Shown: in pieces, positions 39,016 to 60,600 of the stretch
Position numbering within the stretch: position 1 is the stretch's first letter
How the letters are laid out: each line of letters begins with the position of its first letter
Source: Sabellastarte sp. h YS-2021
Taxonomy: Eukaryota; Annelida; Polychaeta; Sabellida; Sabellidae
Assembly: GCA_964017235.1 (NCBI GenBank)
Contig: OZ024931.1
Span: 100,954,221-101,018,220 of the forward strand
Length of the DNA stretch: 64,000 nucleotides
Direction: 5' to 3'
The notes under the pieces: model-generated
What the model saw: only the letters and a program-made list of their open reading frames with translations
What the model was told of the DNA's origin: nothing
Database searches by the model: none
Program-made: the position numbers and the translations under genes

Positions 39016-39426
39016 TATTTAAATTGCACCCTCCCTTAATTTTTAATTTTAAAAATGTTGTTTAACATCCTTGGCATTCCTTACTATTCATTCCTAAATT
39101 TCTGGTGTGCATTTTTCTTTTTATGATCATTTTAGTTGAAATAAATGTAAAATGGTTTCTTTAGAAATGTGCTAATAAGACTTCTATATATGGTCAAAAT
39201 CACAAAGTGGCCAAGAGTGAAAGATTTTTCAGGGGTAATTTAATTATGTTTACTATTAAATTTTGCTTTACAAAAAAGACCTCTTTATTTAGGGAGTGAA
39301 TATTTTCTGTTACTCTCCAGGGCTTATCAGAAATTTGGCAAACAGAGGAATAGATCATTTTTAACCCTAGTAACTGGTTCTTGTTATAATTTATGGTACA
39401 TCTAGCATTTTGTAATGTATGTTTTA

Positions 39427-40578
39427 GGTATGCTGAAAGCACTGAAACCAAAATTAAGTGGTTATTCAGGAAATGGCTTTCGTCCAGAAACTTGTTTGAA
39501 ATGAAAAACACAGATGTCCAACTGAGTCCTATCCTGACTGACCTTGAGCACATGTCAAGAGATGAACTGAACTACTGTCTGTCAAGATTTGTTGTAGAAG
39601 TCAGAAAACAAAATGGACAACTTTATCCTGGAAAAACTTTAAGGGAACTAGTTTTGCGCATGCAGTTTTTCCTTGAGAAAAAGGGAAAATGCTACAAACT
39701 ACTTCAGGATGAAGATTTTGTACAGTTTCAAACCACTCTTGATAACACCATGAAAGATATTGCCAAAAAGGGAGCAGGCATACATGTACGCCAAGCAAAA
39801 GTCATATCAGTAGCTGATGAGAAGTTATGGAAATCTGAGGTTTTAGGTTCAGACAGTCCAACTAAACTGGTACATACACTTTTTTATCAGCTTGGACTAA
39901 ATTTTGCACTCAGGGGTGGACGTGAGCATAGAGAATTATGTGTTGGACAAACTTCTCAGCTGACTGTGAATACAGATTCCAACAATGGCCTTTACCTTCA
40001 GTATTGCCAGGATATATCTAATACGGACCAAGGAGGTTTGAAGCATATTAAGCTTGACAAAAAATGTGTGAGAGCTTATGCCAGCAAGAACAGAGATAGG
40101 TGTGTAATTACACTGTATCAAAAATATTTATCCAAGTGTCCCCAAAATAGACCAAGAACCATTATATCTCTGACCACTCACAAAATTAAAATGCAAGGAC
40201 TGGGATGATGAACCAGTTTGGTATACTGCACAACCAATAGGTCAGCATACTCTTTCCAAGATGGTGAAGACGATTTGTCAGGCAGGTTCACTGGAGGGAT
40301 ATTTTACAAACCATTCGTTGAGGGCCATTGCTGCTTTTCGGCTATATAATGCAGGGGTTGATGAACAATTGTTTCAGGAAACAACTGGGCACAAATCAAT
40401 TGCTGTCCGAGGATACAAGAGAACAAGTGATTGCTTAAAAAGAAGCATCAGTGACATATTACTGGGCCAAAATATGAAATCTGCTACTGTCTCTGCACCA
40501 TCAGATGTCAATGTCCAACCAGAAGAATCAAAGGATGAAATCGGAAAATTTTCACTAACTTTTAATTTTAATCTGTAA
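39427..40578 (+). pseudogene. Crypton-like (DUF3504) tyrosine recombinase with two lesions
   Basis: The open frame begins after a plausible splice acceptor (TTTTAG at about 39426) and reads AESTETKIKWLFRKWL, an N-terminal core-binding region. The catalytic domain has Arg in NFALRGGREHREL, His-x-x-Arg in NHSLRAIAAFRLY, a TGHKS motif and Tyr in VRGYKRTSD. DUF3504 proteins derive from Crypton transposons and are numerous in molluscs. The frame is broken near 40160 by a one-base shift; in the correct frame a TGA follows at about 40172 before PLTKLKCKDWDDEPVW. The C-terminal part then reads through to TAA at 40576-40578. Without those two changes it would be near full length, so inactivation is recent. 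A host-domesticated gene with an assembly error is the alternative. Confidence 0.8.
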
Positions 40579-46860: not shown

Positions 46861-47198
46861 TTACATCATCATCATCATTCCTGGAATCGCAGAATTGCCA
46901 TACATGTTGTAGCTCAGATTGTATCTCTTCCTGTCTATGGCCTGCATTGGAACAGACACACGGTTCACATTCACATTTGACATTGCTCTGCTAAACATAT
47001 TCACAGTTAAACGTCTTCCAATGAAGCTACGTCCACCCATGTTGCGTGCAAATTGCATGCAAATGGGTAAAGTCATGAGTGGCACAGCTGGTGACATTCC
47101 AACTCCCAGTGCACTGATGCCTCGTGACCCAAAGTGTGTGGAGGTGTCTTCCAGAACTTCAGTGTCTGGTAGAGGGCAGAAAGGCACTGGCTCCACAC
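46861..47198 (-). CDS. AOS-LOX last exon: 111-residue C-terminal extension beyond the PNS motif
   Basis: The acceptor is CATCTTGACAG; phase 1. It completes the Ser of IPNS and continues VEPVPFCPLPDTEVLEDTST, GSRGISALGVGMSPAVPLM, RSFIGRRLTVNMF and NLSYNMYGNSAIPG to MMMMM and TAA. No domain is recognisable. The expected terminal Ile ligand is absent. The poly-Met end is a short ATG microsatellite abutting the stop codon, so its length may vary. A missed alternative last exon restoring a normal terminus is possible but I see none between 47198 and 47444. Confidence 0.75.
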
Positions 47199-50100
47199 CT
47201 GTCAAGATGAAGAAGAACCCAGTGTACAACCCACAGTGCAGTGCACTCTCACAATACCAGGATTGCATTTTAATTTAATTACAACACCTACTGTTTGACC
47301 ATGCAAGTTCTTTTTCTCATTACAGATAATCCTATAGGTGGTCACAGATAACCCCCTGCCATTAAGTCAAATAAAAATATAACATTTAACATATAACATC
47401 TTTAATATAATTTAACCAAAACAAAAAAGACTGTTTAACTTACTGTTTGGGATTCTTTCAGGGTTGAGGCTGTCATATGAAGCATACAATCCAACTGCCA
47501 TATTTCTGGCCATAATTCTTGAGGAAATCTTCTGCAGTTCAGCTTTCAGGTCATTCTTTATAGCTTGCACTTCTGGTTCCACAAAGTAAGTTTCCAAATT
47601 TGTTCCCAGGGCAGTCTGTATATACAATATTTGTGCACATTTTGCATGAAAGATTCAGGAAAGAAGCAGAGGTATACTACCTCATTAATATAAAAATATG
47701 CTTCCAACTGGAATCTATTGAAAATTTGCCATGACAGATTTCAATTGGGATCTCTACTGGGACAGATTCCAATGGTTACAGATGTTATTAATAAAGGAAG
47801 TACAATAAAAGCATGGTGGTGTTTAGTCAGTATCATAGGGGTACAAGATGTCGAGGCTTGCATTAATAGCTTGACCAGGCTTGTGTTTCACCCAAGCATT
47901 GCCCCTTAGTTCATCCTAACACTTGTGCCTGTAACAGTTTATGCACTCAACTATTCAGTACAGTTGTCAGTATTAGTCATAAGTCTCTCTTGTAAATAAT
48001 CCCTGTAAAACAACTGGATTCTATTTTCGTAGATAATCATTATAACAATTGGAATCTCTCTAGGAGAATTTAAACTGTCCTAGTAGAGATTCGAATTGGA
48101 GTCTGTCCTTATGATTATTCCAGTTGGAGTGGTGTGATACACAAATCTATCATGTAGAAACATTGAAGTCATAAAGATGGTTTGTTTTGCTTAATTTTTT
48201 CTTGAAGTGTTGCAAGCACTTAAATTGGTTTTGAAAAAATGTTTGAAATGACAGTTGAGAGGCTTGTGTCATAAAGTAACCCTTGCCAGTCCTAAACTGT
48301 GTCAAGGAAAAATATAATCAGACAGGACCATATGCTACAGCCCGCGGAAGTAGTTTTCAACATTATGAGCTATGGAAGTGGAACAATACAAAGGTCAAGA
48401 GAATTTCAGAGCAAACAATGTGATATGAGAAATGTATTTCAAATATGGCAGGTCAAAACACTTTGGCAGAGCTAAGGTTAAAGGTCACATCATGATTTAG
48501 CATACCTACACTCCCCAACCAATGACCCATGCAAGAATCAACTTCCTGCACTTTACAGTTTCTGAGATATGGCAAAGGCAAGATTTTAAAGGTTAAGGTC
48601 ACTACAGCAAGGTTAAATGTCAAATCAAAGTAACACCATGACATTTGCACACCTACACCCCTAAGTTGGCCTAACCAATGTCTCTACCAAGTATCAACTA
48701 CCCTATACCATACAGTTTGTGAGATGTAGTCTGGACAAGATTTCAAAGTCAAGGTCACTACAGCAAGGTCGGGGCCTAACCAATGTTACACCATGACGCT
48801 GCACACCTGCATCCCCCGGACCTACAGTTTCTTAGATATAGCCCAGACAAGTGTTTTTCCGGACACCAGCCCATCCAGACACCAAGGGTGAAAACAATGC
48901 CCGTACATCCCTTAAAGGCTGGGGGTAAAACTTACAATGTAAAATACATATACACTGAACCATTTCACTTTGTTGTGATATATATCACCATGTAAAACTA
49001 CACTAGGATTAAAGGCAAAAAATAAAATCCGAGTGACACAAACACTTGCCCAAATATTTAACCACTCAGGTATTAACAAGGAAAATATACATTGTAAATT
49101 CATTTTTCCGAATTTGGCTAGGAAATTAATTTGAGTATTAACATTTATACATTCTCACACTGAATAATTTCATCTGGCTGTCTAGCTATTTAGAAAAAAT
49201 TTATTCAGTCACTGATGCCTTGGATTTATTGTTTCATGTAGCTTTATCACTTCTATCATTTCACCTCAACGAGAATCAGAATTTCAACTGTGACTTTGTA
49301 CTTGCTACTTACATACATAAATGCAGTCATATTTCTTTTTAAAAGTACTCACATTTTCAGCTTTGCACATTGCCAGAGCATAAGCTAGAGATCCATAATA
49401 GGCTTCAGGCGACTGCTCTGGCAAGGTTTTCACAATCAAGTCTCTTCCTACAACACCTCTGCGAGTGGGTATCGGCTGTCTCATCATGGCAGGGACCAGT
49501 GGAAGGAATCCATAAAGATCCATGGCCTCTGCAGTGGTGGCATTGTGTTGGCAGGTCAGTGTGAAGAGCAGCTTAGTGACAAGATCTGCTAGTTCACAAA
49601 TGCTAGACAGTTTGCTGGGCAGACTGGCTGCCAGTCCTGGGGCTTGTGCAAAGCCATTTCCCCAGATATCACTCATCCAGTTCTGCAGCTCATGATCCTC
49701 CTCCACATCATCATTTGTGGTGTAGAAGTGAGTGATGATGCTAAAGCAGTACTTACCAATTGCATTCCACATTTTTAAACCATCATCTCGGTACAGATAG
49801 CCTGGCAACTTGTCAGAATCTTCAACACCTCGGGAGATCAAATCTCTTGGAAAGTCTAACTCTTCAAAGGAAAAGTTCTTAAAGTACTTTTTGACAAGAA
49901 TTTTGAAGCCTTCAGATCCCAGGGAAGTCCATTTGTCAATTGCACCACCCTTATCACATAGATGTTTCCGCAATAAAGTGTTAGTAGGCAGGAAATATCT
50001 GTCAATGGAAAGTTCACAAATAATAATAAAAGAATAAGATGTGGGACACAGAAAAATATGTTTATAATCTTGTTTTACAGTTAGAAACATGACAAACCTG

Positions 50101-53100
50101 TTTAATTTTACAATATGTCTTTGTCAGAAAGAATCAAAATGACCACATATTGAAATTATCACAAAAGCCTGTTTAGCCAATGCAGGCATACAATGTCTCA
50201 AACAATTTCAAATGCTGATTTTATTTCTCAAATATTGCCCTCACACAAATAATTAGACATACATTAGTTTGTAAAGTTTCACAAATGCATAGTACCTGAA
50301 GTGAGGTTTCAGCAGTTTGTATATGGGATGAGATGAGGAGAGATTCCTCAACATTGCAACACAGAAAGGCTCCATCACAAAGTGGCACTTGAGTAGATGT
50401 GAAATCATGAGTTGATGGTGGAAATCCGCACATCTCACCCAGAGTTTAGCCAGAAGCCATTCCTCTCCGTGACTTTTGGGAGTCCACAAAGGATTACTTG
50501 GGCCTGGTTTTTGCTCCAACTGAATGGCTATGGGAATGAACTCATTCTTTCTGTTCACATAGAACAAACACAGTGGTGCACACAGATATCGATGATCTCC
50601 ATCCTGATGAAAGCATGGTACCTCGGACAATACCTCATAATTGGCAATGTAAATATGGCTATCCTGTCAAGGAAAGCACATTTTTTTGTAAGAAATAAAT
50701 GCATAGTTTTATATATTTTATAACAACATTTTTTATATCACTAGGTATATTAATTGAATAAATCATCTCAAAACTTTTTATGATAATTTTTTATTTCAAA
50801 CTATATCAGTTCTGAAAAAATCAAGTGATAAAGCTCTGTCATAGTTCATCACCACAGGAAATTACATTAGTGTGCTGTGTATCAATTAACTTTTAGCTAT
50901 CTACTTATGTATCAGCTGACTAAATCAATATCAGATGGCATTTTCATATCATTGTATATTTCTAAACATTTTTGAAACTATTAGAGGACAACAGGAGAAT
51001 GACTTGCCTGCATTTCTTGATTCAAGGATAGTCCTCGGTCCAGAAATGGTTCCACATCATTTTCAGTGATGGCAAACTGTGGTGGGATTTGGGTGCATCG
51101 CTTGATGAGTCCTGGATTTGATCCTATGAGAAAGAGCCTGGCAAAGTCTTTGTCGTCCTGACAAAGGCGACACATCTCACCTTGTGGGCCATCTGGTAGC
51201 TTCACCTTTGCAATGAAGTGGATGGCATGTTTGATTTTCATCCACTTGGCACGTGCTGCAGACATTCCACCTTTACTTGAACTGGTTGCTGGAACAGATG
51301 CTTGTCGACGTAAAACATTTATATTGGATCTTCTGCGTGTTTCTTCCAAGCTGCTCATTCTTCCAAAGGCATTATGGTTGAGTTGTGTCTTGGCAGAGGT
51401 GATCATAGGACGTACAACTTCTGCAAGAGTTGTGTCAACATCCCAAAGGAGAAGTGAATATTTTTCAGCATGCAGCTGTTCATTTGCTGGTAGATCCTTT
51501 ATTGTAGGAGCTTTTAGACGACTTGGTAAACCACCAAGTTTCTGCCACAAGTATTCATGTTGCTTTTCTCGCAGTTCTAAAAGTCTTTCTTGGCGTAAAA
51601 CTTCATGGCAGTCATATTGAGGTAATGTCACTAAATACAAGAAACATTGTTAGAAATAGACAAAATTTTTGATTGCTTTAAAATTGGTACTTTGGTCTCA
51701 TTACTTATAAGGTTAATTATAAGTAAATACAAAACACTTGGGAAATTTGATTTCACATGTATAAAATTGAACATTTATCTAAAGAACACTTATGTTATTT
51801 CTCTATTAAATTCCAATATGGAAAACAGATACATACATGTGGTTTGCATATTATCAAAACTCTTCTGATAGAGCACTGAGTAATTCATCGAAGTCCTACC
51901 TTCACCAGGCCTCAGTGTGGCCTTGGATAGGATGACACTGTGACAGGGGAACTGCTTCTCATTGGTTTTCTGCTTGCCGGACACTGTGATATATCTCAGG
52001 TACCAGTCATCTGTTAGGTGTCGATGCCGAACACCCAGTGTCAAAGCCAGAATATCACCAATTGGTTCTGTCACAATATCAAAATATTCCACAAATTCAT
52101 CTTTTGACACTTGTTTTTCATCTGTTTTATCATCCAGGCGCTTAGGAGTTGCTCTTCCATGAGTTCCTGTTTGAAGTAAATCAGTTTGATCAGACAGTAT
52201 ACTCACTCTATTCTCAATTATTTATGATAGATGTGAAACTTGATAGGTATCCAAGATTTTTGAGTTACACGTCTGGATCTTGCTTAATTATTTGTCCGTT
52301 ATTTTTAAAGTGTCTAAACTTCTTTACCATTTTCTACTTACCAATTAAACATATTTCCAGTGTCCAATCAATGCATAATACTCTAGTAGGACTTTTGTAA
52401 AGTCTTGTAAATTGCAGCCATGGATCAAAATCACTACAGTGAGGTCAAAGTTCAGATCATGATCACAATATGACATTGCACACCTTCATCCTCTAACCAA
52501 AATTTTTGCCAAGTATCATCTTCCTACATCTTACAGTTTCACAGATATAGCCAGGACAAGATTTTATATGTCAAGGTCACTATGGCAAGGTCAAAGGACA
52601 AATCAAGGTCAGACCATGATGCTGTACACCCACAGCCAATGTCCCCTACCAAGTACGAGCTTCCTATATCTTATGGTTTCTTAGATACAATCTGGACAAG
52701 GTTTTCCTGCTACAATGCTACCAAATGCCCAATAGTCTGCCCAGGCTAAAAAAATGTATTTATTCTGCTACATTTTCATTTAGATTATTGTTTGGACGTT
52801 TCAGATATCTAGCGAAAGTACTGATCAAATACTAGAGTTCTACTAAAAATCAGTACTTGCCTTATTATATATAGCCTTAAAAACTACATGGAACTGAGCT
52901 TATTAATTGTAAATTGTAATTGTATTTATACTCAGCGCAATATCTCCATATACTACAGGACTCAAAGCGCTATTTAACCCATCCGACTGTACAGGTACAG
53001 CCCCAACTCACAAGTAACTGATATTCCCCTAACTGGAAGATAGAGGCTCAAGGATGACCATTTATCATTTATCTTATTAACTGAATGTCTTAGTCTCCTC

Positions 53101-56100
53101 ATTTTGTGATGCAAGTGAAAGAAAAATATTTTTATTCGTCAGGGTTTTCTTCAAAGAATGAAAACCTACCTCACACCAGATACAGTATAAACAATGGGAG
53201 ATATCCACACTGTGGCAGTGAACTTGTTCATTTTTGGCAGGCATCCTGTATTTTGAGTTGTGAAAATCAGGAGTCACTCAGAAAGAGTAACAGAATGATA
53301 GGGAGTTTATATTTTTTACTCAACAGTTTGCTCAAGAGTGCTCACTAGTCATCCAAAAGTAAGAAATTTTCATTTTAGGCAATTTTTGTGACTTTACATT
53401 ATGTCAGTTTATACAGTCCCTGCCGTGCACTTTTTTAGGTTATTGTCTCGAATCTTACTACACCTAATTTCCCTATAAATGACACATCAACTTCACTCTG
53501 AATCAAAAGCAGTCCAGTGTCTGCTGTGGGAAGTTTCTCTCAGGGAGTGGGCACCAATTCTTCTGCTTCAGACTGTACAAATGCTGTGCTACTAACCTGT
53601 CAGTGCAATGTAAATGTCAACTCTGGAGCGCAGTTCCTTCTTGTTGCCAGTGCACACACCAATGACATGTGTCACTCGTTCATGTAGACAGCTTGAGCGA
53701 AGGTTGTCATCTAGCTCAGATGTGTACTTTGGGTCTCCACATCTGCATATCAGACAAATATGTATGGCTCATTTCACAGTAAAAGTCACAACATGACAAA
53801 ACAGGACTGTCTGTAAAATTAACATACCTGTACTGGTGCATTAATGTTTGTTAATGTTTATATGTTTTGACATTGCACAAATTGGTGAGCAGAATCCAAT
53901 ATAATCTGTGACAACTTCACAAATATGTAAAGTTAAAAGTTGTAAGTCTGTGTGAATCACTAAGGTTAATTGATACTTTAGAAACTACCTTTATGAAAGT
54001 TTTATCCAATCTGTTCAACAAATAAATTTAAAAAATCATTCACATCTTCTATGGTTGTCTTTATAATAGAAGAAAGAAACTGAGGTGTATTGGTGATGGG
54101 ATTTAATCACTTTACAAGGTCTGCTGTACCTTTTGATTTCCATAGTTGTGTACATGGTGCAGCAAACATAGTGATAACTCCTGTAGTCATGTATGGACAC
54201 AGGAGAGGGGAATTTCAGGCACGGGGGTTTGTCAGTGATGTTGTAGTAGGTTTTCTTGAGAGCAGAACAAGTTAAAGGTGTGGTCAATTTTATCTCCACC
54301 AAGTCTATCCATGGATAGTGCACCTCATCCCACAGCTACAAGTATGTTTACAAATTCAATATGAAACATCAAATGGTAAACAGCGGCGCAAGACAGGATA
54401 TAATTTGTAAACTATTGTTTATATTATGTTCTGCTTTGGTGTGCATGACACAGACAGTGGGAACAAATTGGATTTACATGCTTTAAATAATGGATTTTTT
54501 TCAAGATTTCGGTCAATAATGGATCTTGTTATTGAGCATCTAATTATACTTTGTCCATAATTAAAACTTAAGCTTTTATACTCTCACATGTAAAATAGTC
54601 AATACATATAAAATGTAATTTCTTCACATTTCCTTTTAAGAAAGTCTCAGTTTTATTGTATAAAATTCCAATGTCATGCAAAAAAAATTAGACAAAAAGC
54701 AATGCAATGATAGAAACTCTGAAAGGATGTTATTTTATATGTCCATACCAAAGATGACAACTTAAATGTGCCTCAGACTTAAAGTGACACACTCCTATGT
54801 TTAATATGGTATCTATTTTACAGATAAACCAGTTTTTAAGCTGTAGTGAAACTGATTTTACTGTTTGTGCATTCCATGAGCTGTCATCTTCATCATCAAG
54901 CACTCCTTTCATCTGAATCTGCAGCTTGTATTTTACCGGACCACTCTCTAGCCTCTTGAAGAACTCACTCCGCAGATATGCCTTACCTTCAACAGTCAAA
55001 TACACTTCTTAACAAAATACCAAAAAGTAAGGCTTCACTTTCATTCAAATGCTAATATTATGAAATAAAATATCAAAATTAATCCCATTTCTCCCAGTTG
55101 TAAGGAAGCAAATCTACCCTTGAACTTTTCACTGGACTCATGAATGACAAAGAATTCATTTCTCTCCAGGAGCTGCCTAATCGACTTTTGGGGCATTCCC
55201 ACAAAATTCATGTTCGTTTCAGCTTGAGAAAGTAATAGCAAGACATCTACAGCTAATTAATCGCTTTTTATGTGTATTAGAATATTTCACCATTCCCAGT
55301 TTGTCATGTACATGTACATTTTCTGATGTTTACTCGTGAGTTGCATAAAAAATAAGATAAAACTGTTAGATACATCCTTTATATATATTCAGAAAGCATA
55401 TTCAACATTTCAGATGCTAAAATGGAGACAATTGAGCATAAATCTGAGGTATTTCCCCCAGGAGTAGCTCAGTAGATTCTTTGGAGAGCTTTGTAAGCCC
55501 AAATTATTTGTTTGGAATGGCTGTTGTTTAAATACCTTGTGTGATCTTGCAATATCATATTGTTCACTTTTCATGCATGTTGTGTAAATACTTTGTGATT
55601 AAATTTTTAGATCTCTATAAATATTATTTGTCAGTTGCTACTAATTATAATACACACACTGTACAATGATCACTGACCTCTGGTTTCTGAACTGTGAATT
55701 TTTTATGTGTATATATTGTTATTAATGTTATTTGCACACTATATAATATTATGTATACACTATACAATGACCACTGACCTCTGGTCTCAGAACTGTGTAA
55801 TATTTATGTGTGTTTGTTATTAATATTGTATGTACACTACACAATGACCACTGACCTCTGGTCTCAGAGCTGTGTAATATTTATGTGTGTTTTTATTAAC
55901 ATTATTTGCCCTGTCTACAATGACCACTGACCTCCAGTTTGAGAATTGTGTAATTGTGTGTTTGTTGTTATTAATGCTATATGCACACTATACAGCGACC
56001 ACTCACCTCTAGTTTCAGAAGTATTTCTCTGAAACTCCCAGGGTGTGTGCTGCTCACTGTATTCCAGTAACCCACTCTCCTCACATAATCCATCTGGAAC

Positions 56101-59100
56101 CAGACGAAAGCGAGCAAGCCGTGGCTTGTCACTCTTTGGAATCAGTTTGTATGGAACTTGGCTATAATATTTCAAATCTGCAAATGACTGGGGTGCTCTT
56201 CTCAAACTATCCACCAAGGCAAAATAGCTAAAAATATAAAAATAATTGATGAAGTAATCTACACTGATAAATTATCCAAAAGAGTTATATTTATTCTTCA
56301 GGAAACATAGTAATCCAAATCTAAATCATACAAATCTAAAACCACAAATGAATTAATTTTGTCACCAAATTATCTTGTGGGAACTGTTGACTATTTCACT
56401 CACACCACTGAGAATGATTCCACTGCATTAACTTAATGCACTAATGATTGGTTAAAATTTCTGTCAAAAATGAGACAAAATATTACCAAGGTTTTAACCC
56501 TGAAAGAATTTTTTTTTAATCTCTATTTGCCGGTCAATATCTTAATTAATTGGCCAAACAAGCATCTGTGATTACCGGTTATGATTTACGTAAAGTCATT
56601 TCATGCATAGCCACTCATCGTGAAAGATGTGTACTCGGAGTCAAACAACTTTTATACCTCAAATATAACCCTGAAAGCAATGTTTATGGAAAGAGATAAA
56701 TATTAACTGCAGGATTTTGATGAATTGTGTTTTTTCCACCTTCCGGCCACCTAGATATCACTGTTTTTAATATTCTTATATGCATTAGTTACACAAGGAT
56801 AACTTGTGGAAGTATGTATGCATATATGAACATATGTATATGTTGTATTGAATAAAGATAACCATTGAATGTATATGTTATGACCCAGGTGTGAAATTGT
56901 CCATTTCATGAAATGTTAAGGTTTTAGAACAGACTAATTAAAGTGGATGACACAAGGCTGCCAAAAAGGATCTTTCTTCAAGACTGCAGACAAGCAAATT
57001 CTATTTGGTCACAAGATATTAGAGAAGTGTTTAAAGTTTTAAATTTAAGCTCAGTGTACAACTCAAAAGTTGCTGTAAATGTTAGAAATGTAAAATCACA
57101 ATTAATGACCATTATAGAAAAGAAATGAAAGTTAGAACTAGAAAACAAGCCAAACCTGAGACTTTACAAAACATTTAAAGTAACTTTTGAAACCAAAGGA
57201 TATCTTTACAGACATCTTAAATGACAAGACAGATCTCTTTTGGCTCAATTCCGAACAGGTGTTTTACCTCTAAGAATTGAAACGGGAAGGTATCAATTGT
57301 GAAAAGATCCAAATACTGAAAGTTTCAGAAAATTAAATGTGGAAGATAGAACTTGTTTAATTTGTAACACAGGTGACATTGAAAATGAGATCCATTTTCT
57401 ATGTAAATGCAGTGCATACAAGATCCCAAGGCTTAATTTGTATAACATAATTGAGAAAAATTTTCAAAATTTTAAAAAAATATCTGATGAAGATAAACTT
57501 AATGTTATTCTGAAATCACATGATAAGGAACTTGTAAGTTTTATTTGTGCTTCATAGAAGATCAGACAAAATGTTATTGCCATGTGATTAAATTTTAGGT
57601 TATATTAATATTGATTTATGCACTTTTTTTGAGAAACAATGCTCAGAAATTTTTGGTGTTTTCCTTTACTAGTAGGTATATTGTTAAACTCTTGCAAATA
57701 ACTAGATATTATTATCTGTATTTTGTTCTTTTAGTATGTCAAAGACTGTAAAATATTGTCCATTTATAATTCTTATAGCAACCACTATTATTAACTATTA
57801 CTTTATAAAAGTGAGATATAAGTCCATTGGGGCTGGGCAAATTGTTTACTGTCTTATTTGATTATTGTTAAATGTATTTGCATGTCACTGTAATAAATAA
57901 ATTCTATTCTATTCTATAATAGAACTTTGTCTCTTTTGTACACTAATCTAGTTTAAAAAGGCGTTCATTTAATGATTAGATCTGAGTAATTGTAGCCTAC
58001 CCTTTGAAAATTAGATCTAAGGTAATTAAAAGTAACTGTCAATTTAAAAAGGCTGAAACCATCCCAAAGGTTACAAAAACAAGTGGGCTAATTACAATTT
58101 AATCCAACTTACCAGTGGTGTGGCTTTCTTTTAATGAGATCTAAAGATCGTAGCCAACCTTTTGAGGATCAGATCTAAGGGTTAATTCAGTGCCTGTCAC
58201 AGTCATAAATTGTATGTTAATGTGGACAAGTGAATAACAACAGTGATATCAACATTTGCAATTAGTAATGTAAATAAACAACCAATGTGGCTTCGTGTTA
58301 AAAGCTCTTAATGTTATAAAATAAATGTTGTAGTTTAGTCTCACCTAGATGCTATCTCAAATTCTTAAAGTTTTAATAAATGTAAATACAAATATTAACA
58401 AACTCTTAACTAATATTTCAATAAAAATACAAAAAATAATTTTGCTGTGAATGAGAGTAAAAATTTCGTACATTTAGTTGTCCATTTCATGAAATGGTCA
58501 GTAGATTCTTCATCCATTTCACGAAATGGACAAATATTTTTGACCATTTCACGAAATGGACAGATTGGTTGGACAATTTCACACCTGGGTCATAACATAT
58601 AAATTCAATAGCTTCGTCAATGAATGTGTAAATTCAATGGCTTAGCCATTGAATCTACACATTCAATAGTAAGCAGCCATTGAATGTGTACATTCAGTAG
58701 TTTATCTGTGGAATGTGTACATTCCACAACCATTATCATTGAATGTGTATATGAACATAACAAATGGAAATAAGTAATTGATAATGTTTGAAATGTAACA
58801 CATTATTGTCATTTTTTTAATAAATCACACCTGTTGATATAACTTACAATTAAACTTTTGCAATGATTTGATTTCCATATTCAGTTACATGGCTATGTAT
58901 TATAACAGAACTGTTTTGTTTTCTAAAAAATGTTCATCTTAATTCGGTTTCTAATTATATTGTCTATGTGGCTAATTACAATTAAATACCAAAATTTCAC
59001 ACCCAAATAGATGAATCCACTGCTATCACATTTTAGAACCATTCAGTTAAAGACCATAATATAACTACCCCAGACTTGATCTGTTTTTCTTTCAATGAGA

Positions 59101-59872
59101 GGCAAACTATTTTAATATTTGCATGTTTCAGCACTTCACAGGTCGTCGTTATTATTATTATTAGTACCCTAATATTTGTATTTCTAAATATACTCACAAA
59201 AGAAATTAGTATGCAAAAATATCAGCAAACCACTTATGTTGTCTTTTCATTTTATGAGAATGTAACCAGGGGGTGTACATTTGTCTAGAAATGCTACTTA
59301 CAAGTTTGGGTTTTTGTTGCAGTAGTCCATGATGTCTTGAGGTTTCTTGAGCTTGATGATTTCCAGGAAAGTCTTGCAGTTTCTAGCCAGGGCCACACGT
59401 CCAGTGAAGAGGATGAGATCTAGTGGACCATCCTCATTCTGGTCAGCAAACTTGATAGCCACCTCCCTCTGACATGAGCCAGCATCATCATCTGATCGCA
59501 GGTTGCTGTGTCTATACAGGAACAACCATACAGTGTACCAGCTCCACCAAATACTGGTTTCCCGATAAACTGTCACTTGATAATGCAAATGGTGGCTTAT
59601 AACATTACAATTGTAGCTTTGATATACATAAGATTATATCTCCTAATTACAAAAAGATGGAGGATTTACCTCAGGCGTACACGGAACCTTTTGCCAGGGA
59701 CAAAGAAATCATTGGCTGGAAGGAGATCATCTTGTAACACTTTTGCATAACCCACTGCTCCCACTGCATTGTAGTGGCGGATAAATTCATTGTCATTTGT
59801 CACAGCCTTCTTCACTTTGGATGACTCGATAGTTTTGAGGCGTGTTTTACTACCAAATCCGGCACTGGGAAT
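46861..59872 (-). CDS. Allene oxide synthase-lipoxygenase (AOS-LOX) fusion-like gene, 5' incomplete
   Basis: Twelve exons on the minus strand join with matching phases into 3,546 nt (1,181 codons plus stop): 59872-59670, 59511-59302, 56227-56007, 55007-54862, 54335-54130, 53742-53597, 52166-51900, 51630-51008, 50663-50296, 49998-49353, 47615-47444 and 47198-46861. The domain order is catalase-related haem domain, PLAT, lipoxygenase, as in coral AOS-LOX, where LOX makes 8R-HPETE and AOS turns it into an allene oxide. Residues aligning with the coral distal His67, Asn137 and haem Tyr353 are present. In LOX the first iron His aligns with Gln, the Asn ligand with Thr, and the C-terminal Ile is missing because 111 residues follow IPNS. 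I infer an altered or catalytically dead LOX. The first exon or exons were not found. Confidence 0.9.
47444..47615 (-). CDS. AOS-LOX exon: lipoxygenase C-terminal helix and PNS motif
   Basis: The acceptor is TATATACAG and the donor CAAACA|GTAAGT; phase 0 in, 1 out. It encodes VEPEVQAIKNDLKAEL, ISSRIMARNMAVGLYASYDS and LNPERIPN. In ordinary lipoxygenases LxPERIPNS is followed by two or three residues ending in the iron-binding Ile. Here the exon is spliced on inside the Ser codon and the protein continues. Confidence 0.9.
47616..48460. other. AOS-LOX intron, no recognised element
   Basis: AT-rich intron sequence. A short block around 47700-48120 repeats GG-ATTCCAATTGGGATCT-type phrases in both orientations. 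No coding exon needed by the alignment lies here. Confidence 0.45.
48465..48910 (-). repeat. ~143-bp tandem repeat family in an AOS-LOX intron
   Basis: Reverse-oriented relatives of the 20.2-20.9 kb units: AAGGTCACTACAGCAAGGT, GCACACCTACACCCC and the end motif CCAAGGGTGAAAACAATGCC, the reverse complement of the end at about 20190-20205. Confidence 0.7.
49353..49998 (-). CDS. AOS-LOX exon: lipoxygenase catalytic domain, Asn ligand replaced by Thr
   Basis: The acceptor is CATTGACAG and the donor GAAAAT|GTGAGT; phase 2 in, 0 out. It encodes RDLISRGVEDSDKLPGYLYR, DDGLKMWNAI, HELQNWMSDIWGNGF and FTLTCQHNATTAEAMDLYGF, then VPAMMRQPIPTRRG. In the last block the third His ligand is present in CQHN. 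The residue four after it is Thr, where coral and human 5-LOX have the Asn ligand (QHAAVN). Some LOX use His or Ser there, so this change alone need not abolish activity. The residue aligning with the Ala/Gly (Coffa) stereocontrol site is Pro in YFLPTN. Confidence 0.92.
50296..50663 (-). CDS. AOS-LOX exon: lipoxygenase iron-helix region, first His ligand apparently replaced
   Basis: The acceptor is TCCTTGACAG and the donor CTTCAG|GTACTA; phase 0 in, 2 out. It encodes DSHIYIANYEVLSEVPCF, LCLFYVNRKNEFIPIAIQLE, NPLWTPKS and ADFHHQLMISHLLKCH. Aligned without gaps to coral LOX (from W of WVRCAD to HLL), the second iron His is kept. The first falls on Gln, with His one residue earlier. A one-residue register slip is the alternative. 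The rest (SSHPIYKLLKPHFRY) is well conserved. Confidence 0.9.
51008..51630 (-). CDS. AOS-LOX exon: lipoxygenase N-terminal helical part, with basic Ser/Arg-rich insert
   Basis: Phase 1 in, 0 out. It encodes RLLELREKQHEYLW, KDLPANEQLHAEKYSLLL and DKDFARLFLIGSNPGLIKRC, each matching the coral LOX order (KELEQRKLTYQW, DDLP, RWFGYQFLNGANP). Between them is a basic Ser/Arg-rich stretch (LEETRRRSNINVLRRQASVP, ATSSSKGG) unlike the coral sequence. The donor is CAG|GCAAGT, a GC-AG intron with otherwise ideal donor context. Confidence 0.88.
51900..52166 (-). CDS. AOS-LOX exon: PLAT domain
   Basis: Phase 1 in and out; acceptor TTCAAACAG, donor GTGAAG|GTAGGA. It encodes THGRATPKRL, DIVTEPIGDILALTLGVRHR, DDWYLRYITVSG and FPCHSVI. 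The order GDI..L.LGVRH.....DWYL..I.V follows the PLAT fold of lipoxygenases, where the Trp-containing loop contacts membrane. Confidence 0.88.
52420..52720 (-). repeat. ~143-bp tandem repeat family, second intronic copy
   Basis: Two units with AAGGTCACTATGGCAAGGTC, TACCAAGTACGAGCTTCCTA and CTTAGATACAATCTGGACAA. Same orientation as the copy at 48.5 kb. Confidence 0.65.
53597..53742 (-). CDS. AOS-LOX exon: linker into PLAT domain
   Basis: The acceptor is GATATGCAG and the donor CTGACAG|GTTAGT; phase 2 in, 1 out. It encodes CGDPKYTSELDDN and then THVIGVCTGNKKELRSRVDI, the first strands of a PLAT/C2-like domain. PLAT domains in this family mediate calcium-aided membrane association. Confidence 0.85.
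54130..54335 (-). CDS. AOS-LOX exon: haem domain with proximal Tyr
   Basis: The acceptor is ACTTGTAG and the donor CAAAAG|GTACAG; phase 0 in, 2 out. It encodes LWDEVHYPWIDLVEIKLTTP (coral ILWDKETHPWFDLAKV) and later DYRSYHYVCCTMYTTMEIKR. Tyr in CTMYT aligns with coral Tyr353, the axial haem ligand. The Arg four residues before it (R-x-x-x-Y) is Cys here, which may change haem or substrate handling. Confidence 0.88.
54862..55007 (-). CDS. AOS-LOX exon: haem domain, GPVKYKLQIQ segment
   Basis: Phase 1 in, 0 out; donor CAAACA|GTAAAA. It encodes AYLRSEFFKRLESGPVKYKL followed by QIQMKG, matching coral RLQKGPVNYRLQIQ. Two AGs three bases apart could serve as acceptor, changing the exon by one codon. 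Confidence 0.85.
55118..55252 (-). CDS. Candidate cassette exon in AOS-LOX, phase-compatible but without a coral counterpart
   Basis: A 135-bp open segment lies between TTAATTAG and G|GTAGAT. It is phase 1 at both ends, so inclusion adds 45 residues (VDVLLLLSQAETNMNFVGMP, ...RQLLERNEFFVIHE...) without shifting the frame. The coral proteins have nothing at this point and the flanking exons join well without it. I do not recognise the peptide. It could be a lineage-specific cassette or a chance open stretch. Confidence 0.35.
55669..56018. repeat. Intronic tandem repeat containing copies of an exon's splice donor, five units
   Basis: GACCACTGACCTCTGGTCTC or close variants recur at about 55669, 55770, 55847, 55920 and 55994 (spacing ~75-100 bp). 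The last unit covers the real exon end and donor at 56007. On the gene strand each upstream-derived copy reads AG|GTCAGT, a plausible splice donor. Confidence 0.8.
56007..56227 (-). CDS. AOS-LOX exon: haem domain, LRRAP-YYSQ segment
   Basis: The acceptor is ATTTTTAG and the donor ACTAGAG|GTGAGT; phase 2 in, 1 out. It encodes FALVDSLRRAPQSFADLKYY followed by SQVPYKLI, close to the coral LVEALRRAP...YYYSQ. Its donor region is copied four more times downstream in the intron (55669-55940). Using the first of those copies would add 25 in-frame residues. Confidence 0.9.
56863..58610. mobile_element. Element bounded by ~44-bp inverted repeats, with a LINE tail inside, in an AOS-LOX intron
   Basis: The left end TATATGTTATGACCCAGGTG with TGAAATTGTCCATTTC is mirrored at the right (58562-58610). 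The short palindromic block CCATTTCRTGAAATGG appears once at the left and three times at the right. The LINE fragment at 56.9-57.9 kb lies between, so it is probably a later insertion. Confidence 0.6.
56940..57930 (+). pseudogene. 3' end of a non-LTR retrotransposon, broken
   Basis: Pieces in several frames read LAQFRTGVLPLRIETGRYQ, then DRTCLICNTGDIENEIHFLC and KCSAYKIPRLNLYNII. This is the C-terminal zinc-knuckle region typical of animal LINE pol proteins. Stops and frame changes separate the pieces. The copy ends in AAATTCTATTCTATTCTATA, a simple-repeat tail. It is antisense to the AOS-LOX gene. Confidence 0.75.
58600..58760. repeat. Cluster of GAATGTGTACATTC-type palindromic repeats
   Basis: CATTGAATGTGTACATTC and variants occur five or six times in both orientations, about 20-35 bp apart. 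Confidence 0.6.
58761..59301. other. AOS-LOX intron, no recognised element
   Basis: AT-rich with a short ATT microsatellite near 59149. Nothing else supported. Confidence 0.4.
59302..59511 (-). CDS. AOS-LOX exon: haem domain with conserved Asn
   Basis: Phase 2 in and out, donor AACTT|GTAAGT. It encodes HSNLRSDDDAGS, AIKFADQNEDGPLDLILFTG and ALARNCKTFLEI. The Asn in ARN aligns with coral Asn137, the second distal-side residue. KFAD-x5-GPLDL is a strong family signature of catalase-related AOS. Confidence 0.9.
59670..59872 (-). CDS. AOS-LOX exon: haem domain with distal His
   Basis: The acceptor is TTTCTACAG and the donor CCTGAG|GTAAAT; phase 0 in, 2 out. It encodes FIRHYNAVGAVGYAKVLQDD and FFVPGKRFRVRL. 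The His in IRHYNAVG (residue 33 of the visible protein) aligns with coral His67, the distal haem residue. The residue before it is Arg, where coral AOS has Thr66, a position known to separate AOS from catalase behaviour. Earlier coding sequence must lie upstream of 59873. Confidence 0.9.
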
Positions 59873-60600
59873 CTGTAGAAATAGTAAGACACCTCTCATA
59901 ATTACCAGTAAAGATGACTTACATGCATTGCCAGTTTAAGTATGCAGTCAGACTGGACCTACATACATATGTAAAAATCAACTCCTTATACAAACTTCAC
60001 AGCTTAGTGTGAGAGCACTGCATTGTGGTCTCTGTCAGTCATTCCAACAACCTGGCCCAATGTTCATATCACAAGTTCACAAGATGTATGCTTTACAGCT
60101 TGCTGACCTCAATTAGCCAAATTCTTGTATTAGTTTAAGATTTAAAAAATAAGCTGGAAACATGTTAAGATATAAAATTTCATTAAAAGTAGGGGAATAT
60201 CAAGAACATGTGCACATGCATAACCAATCTAAGCATGTACAGGTTTAAGGGGCCAAGGGGTTTTAGCAGCTAATTTCATGTCAGGACAAACCCTCAGTAA
60301 GTCCATATGCTGTCAACACACAAGTACAGTGGTAAAAACCAAGTGATCAGACCTATTATTTAATAAACATAAGGTTAAGGGAGGTTAGAAGAAAAGGTCA
60401 TATCCCGTATGTTTGCTCACTTCTCAAAGTATGGTTAGGTTTTTCTGAACAGCCCAGCATGTAAGAAGAAAGGGTTGACCAGCGGCCATTCAAAAAAACC
60501 TTTTTCACTGGACAATTCAAATCTATTGCTTTATTGCTTGCAACAGCCTGCATGGAAAATTATTATGCTTGAAGTCTCTGTTTTGCAGTCAAATTCCCCA
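59873..60600. other. Sequence upstream of the first recognised AOS-LOX exon
   Basis: It begins as intron (acceptor at 59873). No missing 5' exon of AOS-LOX could be identified here. Confidence 0.4.

What the first reader, a model, noticed from the sequence alone, without database searches (positions are those of the whole stretch)
49353..50663. AOS-LOX fusion whose lipoxygenase seems to have lost iron ligands
Seen: ADFHHQLMISHLLKCH and CQHNATTAEAMD occupy the iron-helix positions. Ungapped alignment to coral 8R-LOX (ligands His384, His389, His570, Asn574, Ile693) gives Gln, His, His, Thr and no terminal Ile. The Coffa stereocontrol position is Pro. Three changed ligands in an otherwise well-conserved, intact, spliced frame argue for selection on a non-canonical role rather than decay. 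Inference: a haem AOS carrying a pseudo-lipoxygenase, perhaps using substrate from another LOX, or a LOX with rewired metal binding.
Basis: partly seen in the sequence, partly recalled or inferred. Interest (0 to 1): 0.92.

Follow-up and report, generated by a model that had tools for sequence, protein, structure and literature searches.

The report
Fused lipoxygenase missing its usual end
A marine invertebrate gene joins a catalase-like enzyme to a lipoxygenase whose metal site keeps its three histidines but has lost the free chain end that lipoxygenases use to hold iron; relatives share that change, so the site looks rebuilt and not simply decayed.

Summary
The gene is real: 13 exons (first tentative), minus strand 60306-46861, 1179 residues, no internal stop: catalase-like AOS, PLAT, lipoxygenase. 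His946 is present too. Two of five ligands are changed: the Asn is Thr950, and there is no terminal Ile, because the chain runs on 108 residues past that position. The Coffa residue is Leu, not Pro.

The missing end is shared. Capitella P0001 and two unnamed JGI proteins (P0002, P0101) also run on; P0001 and P0002 group with this gene at 100/100. A Glu just before the old Ile position is invariant (4 of 4). All seven relatives covering the fourth site have His, so this copy's Thr is its own.

Best reading: a metal-binding but rebuilt, non-canonical lipoxygenase, perhaps with the Glu side chain replacing the C-terminal carboxylate; a non-catalytic partner domain is the main rival. A paralogue on contig C18, and a JGI relative, have lost all four side-chain ligands: those are true pseudo-lipoxygenases. 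No activity, metal or transcript data were available.

The parts
60292..60306 (-). tentative first coding exon (MDLLR); weak GTTTGT donor
   Evidence: spliced alignment to Capitella P0001, which has 5 residues before IPPAG
59670..59872 (-). exon 2, catalase-like (AOS) domain; Arg37-His38 at 59779-59774 stand where coral has Thr66-His67
59302..59511 (-). exon 3, AOS; Asn117 (coral Asn137) at 59381-59379
56007..56227 (-). exon 4, AOS
54862..54986 (-). exon 5, AOS
54130..54335 (-). exon 6, AOS; haem-ligand Tyr320 (coral Tyr353) at 54152-54150; Cys316 where coral has Arg349
   Evidence: the end of this exon and the start of the next rest on the spliced alignment only
53597..53742 (-). exon 7, start of PLAT domain
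51900..52166 (-). exon 8, PLAT domain
   Evidence: PF01477, E 9.3e-9
51008..51630 (-). exon 9, start of lipoxygenase domain, with a basic, Ser-rich insert (RRRS, LRRQAS); GC donor CAG|GCAAGT
   Evidence: the spliced alignment breaks this exon where Capitella lacks the insert; P0002 has a related insert
50296..50663 (-). exon 10, iron helix: ligands His761 (50399-50397) and His766 (50384-50382) kept; Gln756/Leu757 where coral has His752/Gln753
49353..49998 (-). exon 11: Coffa Leu804, ligand His946 (49547-49545) kept, Thr950 (49535-49533) at the fourth ligand, Ala953 where coral has Gln950
47444..47615 (-). exon 12, last helices of the lipoxygenase core, ends in ...ERIPN(S)
46861..47198 (-). exon 13: invariant Glu1070 (47193-47191), Pro1071 at the position of the terminal Ile, then a 108-residue extension and stop
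   Evidence: the spliced alignment follows this exon to 47037, where the Capitella model diverges

Best explanation
This is a member of a conserved subfamily of AOS-lipoxygenase fusions, probably of annelids or their kin. Shown by sequence: the three-His face of the lipoxygenase metal site is kept; the free C-terminal carboxylate that should be the fifth ligand cannot exist as translated, because an extension of 72-118 residues follows; and the second shell is changed (coral Gln753 to Phe or Leu, Gln950 to Ala). Inferred: the domain still binds a metal, in a changed geometry, possibly with the invariant Glu next to the old Ile position supplying a side-chain carboxylate, and does not do ordinary arachidonate dioxygenation. 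It may instead isomerise hydroperoxides, or hold lipid for the neighbouring haem domain, with hydroperoxide coming from another lipoxygenase such as the canonical one on contig C1.
For: Ligands, counting this gene and leaving out P0100, a database fragment of this same gene: first His kept in 5 of 5 members that cover it, second in 4 of 5 (P0108 has Thr), third in 8 of 8; the fourth position is His in 7 of 7 relatives and Thr only here. In models of two relatives, Capitella Val1017, right after Glu1016, is matched to the last aligned residue of the chain in 50 of 50 listed PDB entries (coral 1066, 5-LOX 673, soybean 839), and P0101 Pro534, right after Glu533, in 49 of 50; that coral 1066 is the terminal Ile is from PMC5793058, the other numbers are recalled. 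Of the 208 proteins listed by the three protein searches (one search listed 120 of 157), 163 end in the standard pattern, 149 of these in Ile, and none of the 163 has an acidic penultimate residue, against Glu in 4 of 4 here. This gene's extension beats all 2000 shuffles against each of three relatives. Clade support 100/100 in a 17-row tree. Ala at coral Gln950 in 8 of 8 family members, Gln in 182 of 200 other rows. The same genome holds a lipoxygenase with His, His, His, Asn and a terminal SISI.
Against: No coordinates were available, so no distance from Glu to the metal was measured; the extension is modelled with low confidence (pLDDT under 50 over P0001 1018-1089 and P0101 566-642). The extension is weakly alike in P0101-P0001 and not significantly in P0002-P0001 (4 and 153 of 2000 shuffles). 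This copy has lost the His that relatives keep at the fourth site, and P0108 has Thr at the second ligand, which looks like further erosion. Second-shell changes are not unique: at Gln753, 41 of 200 other rows have Glu and two have Leu, and Branchiostoma P0092 has Leu and Cys at the two Gln with otherwise standard His, His, His, Asn (sequence). The haem domain is altered as well (Arg37, Cys316). No metal, activity or RNA data.
Confidence: 0.5

Rival explanations
1. Pseudo-lipoxygenase: the domain binds no catalytic metal and serves as a lipid-binding or membrane-targeting partner for the haem domain.
For: Terminal carboxylate gone, fourth ligand Thr here, second shell changed; a paralogue on C18 has Arg, Gln, Asn, Thr at the four side-chain ligands and the JGI relative P0190 has Tyr, Leu, Ser, Thr, so ligand-free copies do exist in this genome and elsewhere.
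Against: First His kept in 5 of 5, second in 4 of 5, third in 8 of 8 members that cover them, and His at the fourth site in 7 of 7 relatives; without metal there is little reason to keep them.
Confidence: 0.3
2. Ordinary lipoxygenase after maturation: a protease cuts at the old Ile position and exposes a new C-terminus (Pro or Val).
For: The residues after the Ile position are conserved (V/I/L-P-F/Y-x-P) in 4 of 4 and could be a recognition site; free C-terminal residues other than Ile occur in coral LOXs (Thr, Ser; PMC5793058, section 6).
Against: Conservation also deeper inside the extension (LMTLP in three of four; RSF(I/L)xRR in three of four) and the second-shell changes are not explained; no protease is known to me.
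Confidence: 0.08
3. Exon or isoform artefact: the true last exon ends in Ile and was missed.
For: The gene model is from DNA only.
Against: 233 AG acceptors from exon 12 down to 43000 were read; 25 give a tail of 8 residues or fewer ending in Ile or Val and none of these 25 passes my cut-off for a pyrimidine-rich YAG context, while the acceptor used does; the same extension follows in relatives, two of them (P0002, P0101) coded in one piece on contigs of 4511 and 2164 bases.
Confidence: 0.04
4. Decaying pseudogene.
For: Thr at the fourth ligand is unique to this copy among the family members that cover it; a related fragment P0108 has lost another ligand.
Against: No stop or frameshift in 1179 codons, consistent splice sites, 240 of 452 aligned core residues identical to Capitella.
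Confidence: 0.05

Closest known systems
Coral AOS-8R-lipoxygenase fusion (Plexaura homomalla; PDB 3dy5, 3fg1, 2fnq)
   Same: Same order catalase-like domain, PLAT, lipoxygenase; both stretches align (262 and 332 bits)
   Different: Coral keeps Thr66, Arg349, Asn947 and the free terminal Ile (PMC5793058); this gene has Arg, Cys, Thr and an extension; Coffa Gly against Leu
Branchiostoma AOS-lipoxygenase-like proteins (P0091, P0092)
   Same: Same fusion order, found by the family profile
   Different: Lipoxygenase ligands His, His, His, Asn; in P0092 the haem-ligand position is His instead of Tyr; C-termini of the database models not informative
Mammalian lipoxygenases such as ALOX15B and rabbit 15-lipoxygenase
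   Same: Show that the fourth ligand may be Ser or His (PMC5793058, section 6: mammalian LOXs have Asn, His or Ser; which enzyme has which is recalled)
   Different: They end in a free Ile (PMC5793058, section 6)
Acropora millepora predicted LOX c006594 (PMC5793058, section 6)
   Same: Thr at the fourth ligand
   Different: First His replaced by Lys; no extension is mentioned in that section; not characterised

Membership tests
Lipoxygenase (PF00305) | Lipoxygenase fold and profile | tested here: met
Lipoxygenase (PF00305) | Three iron-binding His | tested here: met
   His761, His766, His946
Lipoxygenase (PF00305) | Fourth ligand Asn, His or Ser | tested here: not met
   Thr950; His in 7 of 7 relatives
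Lipoxygenase (PF00305) | C-terminal residue (Ile or similar) whose carboxylate binds iron | tested here: not met
   Chain continues 108 residues past that position; relatives likewise
Lipoxygenase (PF00305) | Dioxygenation of polyunsaturated fatty acids | not testable with these tools
   needs enzyme assay
Coral-type AOS-lipoxygenase fusion | Catalase-like domain, PLAT and lipoxygenase in one reading frame | tested here: met
   the catalase Pfam model PF00199 does not reach this gene, so this part rests on similarity to coral 3dy5
Coral-type AOS-lipoxygenase fusion | AOS residues Thr66, His67, Asn137, Arg349, Tyr353 | tested here: not met
   Arg, His, Asn, Cys, Tyr here: 3 of 5
Pseudo-lipoxygenase (no metal-binding side chains) | Loss of the His ligands | tested here: not met
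   three His kept here; met in the C18 paralogue (Arg, Gln, Asn, Thr)

The most novel reading that the evidence does not exclude
An invertebrate lipoxygenase subfamily has given up the C-terminal carboxylate, a hallmark ligand of lipoxygenases, and replaced it by the side chain of an invariant Glu one residue earlier, freeing the C-terminus to grow a conserved tail; in the same genome another fused lipoxygenase has lost every side-chain ligand, so fused copies have handed the oxygenation step to a stand-alone enzyme.
Probability: 0.27. Interest if true: 0.85.

Novelty: new variant of a known kind. Interest (0 to 1): 0.66.

Why it matters
The C-terminal carboxylate is treated as a defining ligand of lipoxygenases (one paper screened a proteome by terminal Ile or Val, PMC10653942, passages). 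A conserved subfamily without it tests whether that ligand is essential, and how a metal site can be rebuilt while the fold stays. The four lipoxygenase genes found in this genome form a series from intact (C1) through partly altered (C20, this gene) to free of side-chain ligands (C18), which makes the origin of pseudo-lipoxygenases directly testable.

Tried and rejected
Tried without result: structure of the extension (low confidence in both models); a PDB relative of the extension (one chance hit at E 0.66); an isoform ending in Ile; terminal statistics from the large alignment (one search printed no usable C-termini, replaced by a pattern count); a search with the family profile for more members (10 hits, of which P0001 from the family, two Branchiostoma fusions and seven proteins without a lipoxygenase Pfam domain; only the 7991 candidates sharing most words were scored).

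Papers: PMC5793058 passages and section 6; PMC5617202, PMC10653942, PMC4769524 and PMC12205514 passages only; all others only in listings. Seven paper searches were made and no listed title or abstract start dealt with this subfamily; several lists were cut (one search showed 20 of 1302, 15 of 646, 20 of 25) and the library lacks most subscription journals, so novelty in print is not established. Animal transcripts annotated as AOS-lipoxygenase are mentioned for a clam and for nudibranchs (PMC4769524, PMC12205514), without active-site analysis in the passages seen.

Weak spots: the C18 and C20 models are homology-guided, C18 lacks its N-terminal part, and parts of the C1 model are unreliable small exons; only the ligand-bearing exons of these are relied on. 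C18's His at the haem-ligand position lies next to an exon end and is uncertain. C20's Thr-His pair rests on the spliced alignment alone. The organism was not identified: the mitochondrial contig was read with code 5, Capitella is nearest for this gene and Ridgeia nearest for C1 (310 of 593), which suggests an annelid or close kin. Other lipoxygenase copies in the genome cannot be excluded, as the protein searches of it did not complete and one search gives lower bounds.
Full report
The gene. Spliced on the minus strand, the window encodes a catalase-like AOS domain, a PLAT domain and a lipoxygenase in one frame. I built the model by hand and checked it with a spliced aligner using the Capitella protein. 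That returned most of the same exon boundaries, moved one pair (exon 6 end and exon 7 start, adopted) and proposed a first mini-exon, MDLLR, with a weak donor. It split exon 9 where Capitella lacks an insert, and in the last exon, where Capitella diverges, it stopped at 47037 and added two tiny pieces further on; there I keep the hand model. The introns follow GT-AG except for exon 9's GC donor. The result is 1179 residues with no internal stop.

Ligands. PMC5793058 (section 6) gives the coral ligands as His757, His762, His943, Asn947 and the C-terminal residue (section 7 passage: I1066). In the alignment the first two are the His of THLLRTH. Here they are His761 and His766. The third, His946, is kept. 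The fourth is Thr950 and the fifth is absent. The Coffa residue is Leu804. Mammalian enzymes have Asn, His or Ser at the fourth site (PMC5793058), so Thr alone would not prove inactivity.

The missing end. After ERIPNS, where coral reads PNGTAI and stops (PMC5793058), this gene reads VEP and goes on for 108 residues. Three proteins found by search do the same: Capitella P0001 (IPNSTEV + 72), P0002 (IPLSAEP + 118) and P0101 (IPVSAEP + 108). This gene's extension beats all of 2000 shuffles against each of the three; of the three pairs among the others, P0101-P0002 does too, P0101-P0001 is weaker (4 of 2000) and P0002-P0001 is not significant (153 of 2000). In a 17-row tree this gene, P0001 and P0002 group at 100/100; P0101 was not in it. 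Models of P0001 and P0101 have a confident lipoxygenase core, and the residue after the invariant Glu is matched to the last aligned residue of solved lipoxygenases in 50 of 50 and 49 of 50 listed entries. The extension itself is not confidently modelled. Among 208 proteins listed by three searches, 163 end in the standard pattern, 149 of them in Ile, and none of the 163 has an acidic residue just before the end. P0002 and P0101 are coded in one piece on contigs of 4511 and 2164 bases, which suggests, but does not show, that they are transcripts.

Second shell. Coral Gln753 is Leu, Phe, Phe, Phe in the four members that cover it; Gln950 is Ala in 8 of 8. Among the 200 other rows of that alignment, which include seven hits without a lipoxygenase Pfam domain, Gln is found in 139 (Glu in 41) and 182. 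Branchiostoma P0092, with standard ligands, also departs at both (Leu, Cys), so these changes alone do not mark a rebuilt site. That these Gln form a hydrogen-bond network with the fourth ligand is recalled.

Relatives and paralogues. P0102-P0105 are fragments with His at the third and fourth sites. P0108, 109 of 203 aligned residues identical to this gene, has Thr at the second ligand; it is read from a short contig, appears to include intron sequence and may be a pseudogene. The same genome has three more lipoxygenase loci at the sensitivity: C1 with His, His, His, Asn and SISI at the end; C20, an AOS fusion with His, His, His, Thr and a terminal Ser; C18, an AOS fusion with Arg, Gln, Asn, Thr and a terminal Met. 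P0190, 150 of 277 residues identical to C18, has Tyr, Leu, Ser, Thr. So C18-type copies are the real pseudo-lipoxygenases. At the AOS sites 66, 67, 137, 349, 353, C20 has all five coral residues in its homology-guided model; this gene has Arg, His, Asn, Cys, Tyr; Capitella has Arg, Arg, Asn, Cys, Tyr (coral Thr66 from PMC5793058).

Reading. Keeping the His ligands in nearly every member that covers them, and a fourth His in seven of seven relatives, argues that a metal is still bound. Losing the terminal carboxylate, changing the second shell and adding a conserved tail together argue for a rebuilt site. The invariant Glu is the obvious candidate for a replacement carboxylate, but this is inference without coordinates. 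In this genome the three fused copies have altered sites and the one copy that looks unfused (C1, like the 667-residue Ridgeia protein P0178) has a canonical one, so division of labour is possible. Against making this a rule: coral and Branchiostoma fusions keep His, His, His, Asn, stand-alone Ridgeia P0178 has Asn at the second ligand, and an AOS domain in front of C1 was not excluded.

Noticed in passing
window 39390-40578 (+): Two overlapping frames with QRICH1, DUF3504 and phage-integrase-type matches, probably a Crypton-like tyrosine-recombinase element (name recalled); the frame changes near 40174-40208.
   Followed up: partly
G000 C18:19243000-19282999 (L015, L016, L025, L026): AOS-lipoxygenase paralogue with all four side-chain iron ligands replaced and a terminal Met; JGI relative P0190 shares the side-chain losses.
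   Followed up: partly
G000 C20:28298000-28337999 (L017, L018, L023, L024): AOS-lipoxygenase paralogue with coral-like AOS residues in its model but Thr at the fourth ligand and a terminal Ser.
   Followed up: partly
P0178 (Ridgeia piscesae) residue aligned to His762: A stand-alone annelid lipoxygenase with Asn at the second iron ligand.
   Followed up: no
P0092 (Branchiostoma lanceolatum): AOS-lipoxygenase fusion with His in place of the haem-ligand Tyr; P0091 reads alike there.
   Followed up: no
window 51630-51008 (-): Basic Ser-rich insert with RRRS and LRRQAS, resembling kinase sites (recalled); similar RRFS and RQFS in P0002 and LLRHFS in P0101.
   Followed up: no
P0002 C-terminus: The extension of P0002 itself ends in NSANI, resembling a normal lipoxygenase end; this gene has GNSAI shortly before its end, P0101 ends ESSAF. 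May be chance.
   Followed up: no
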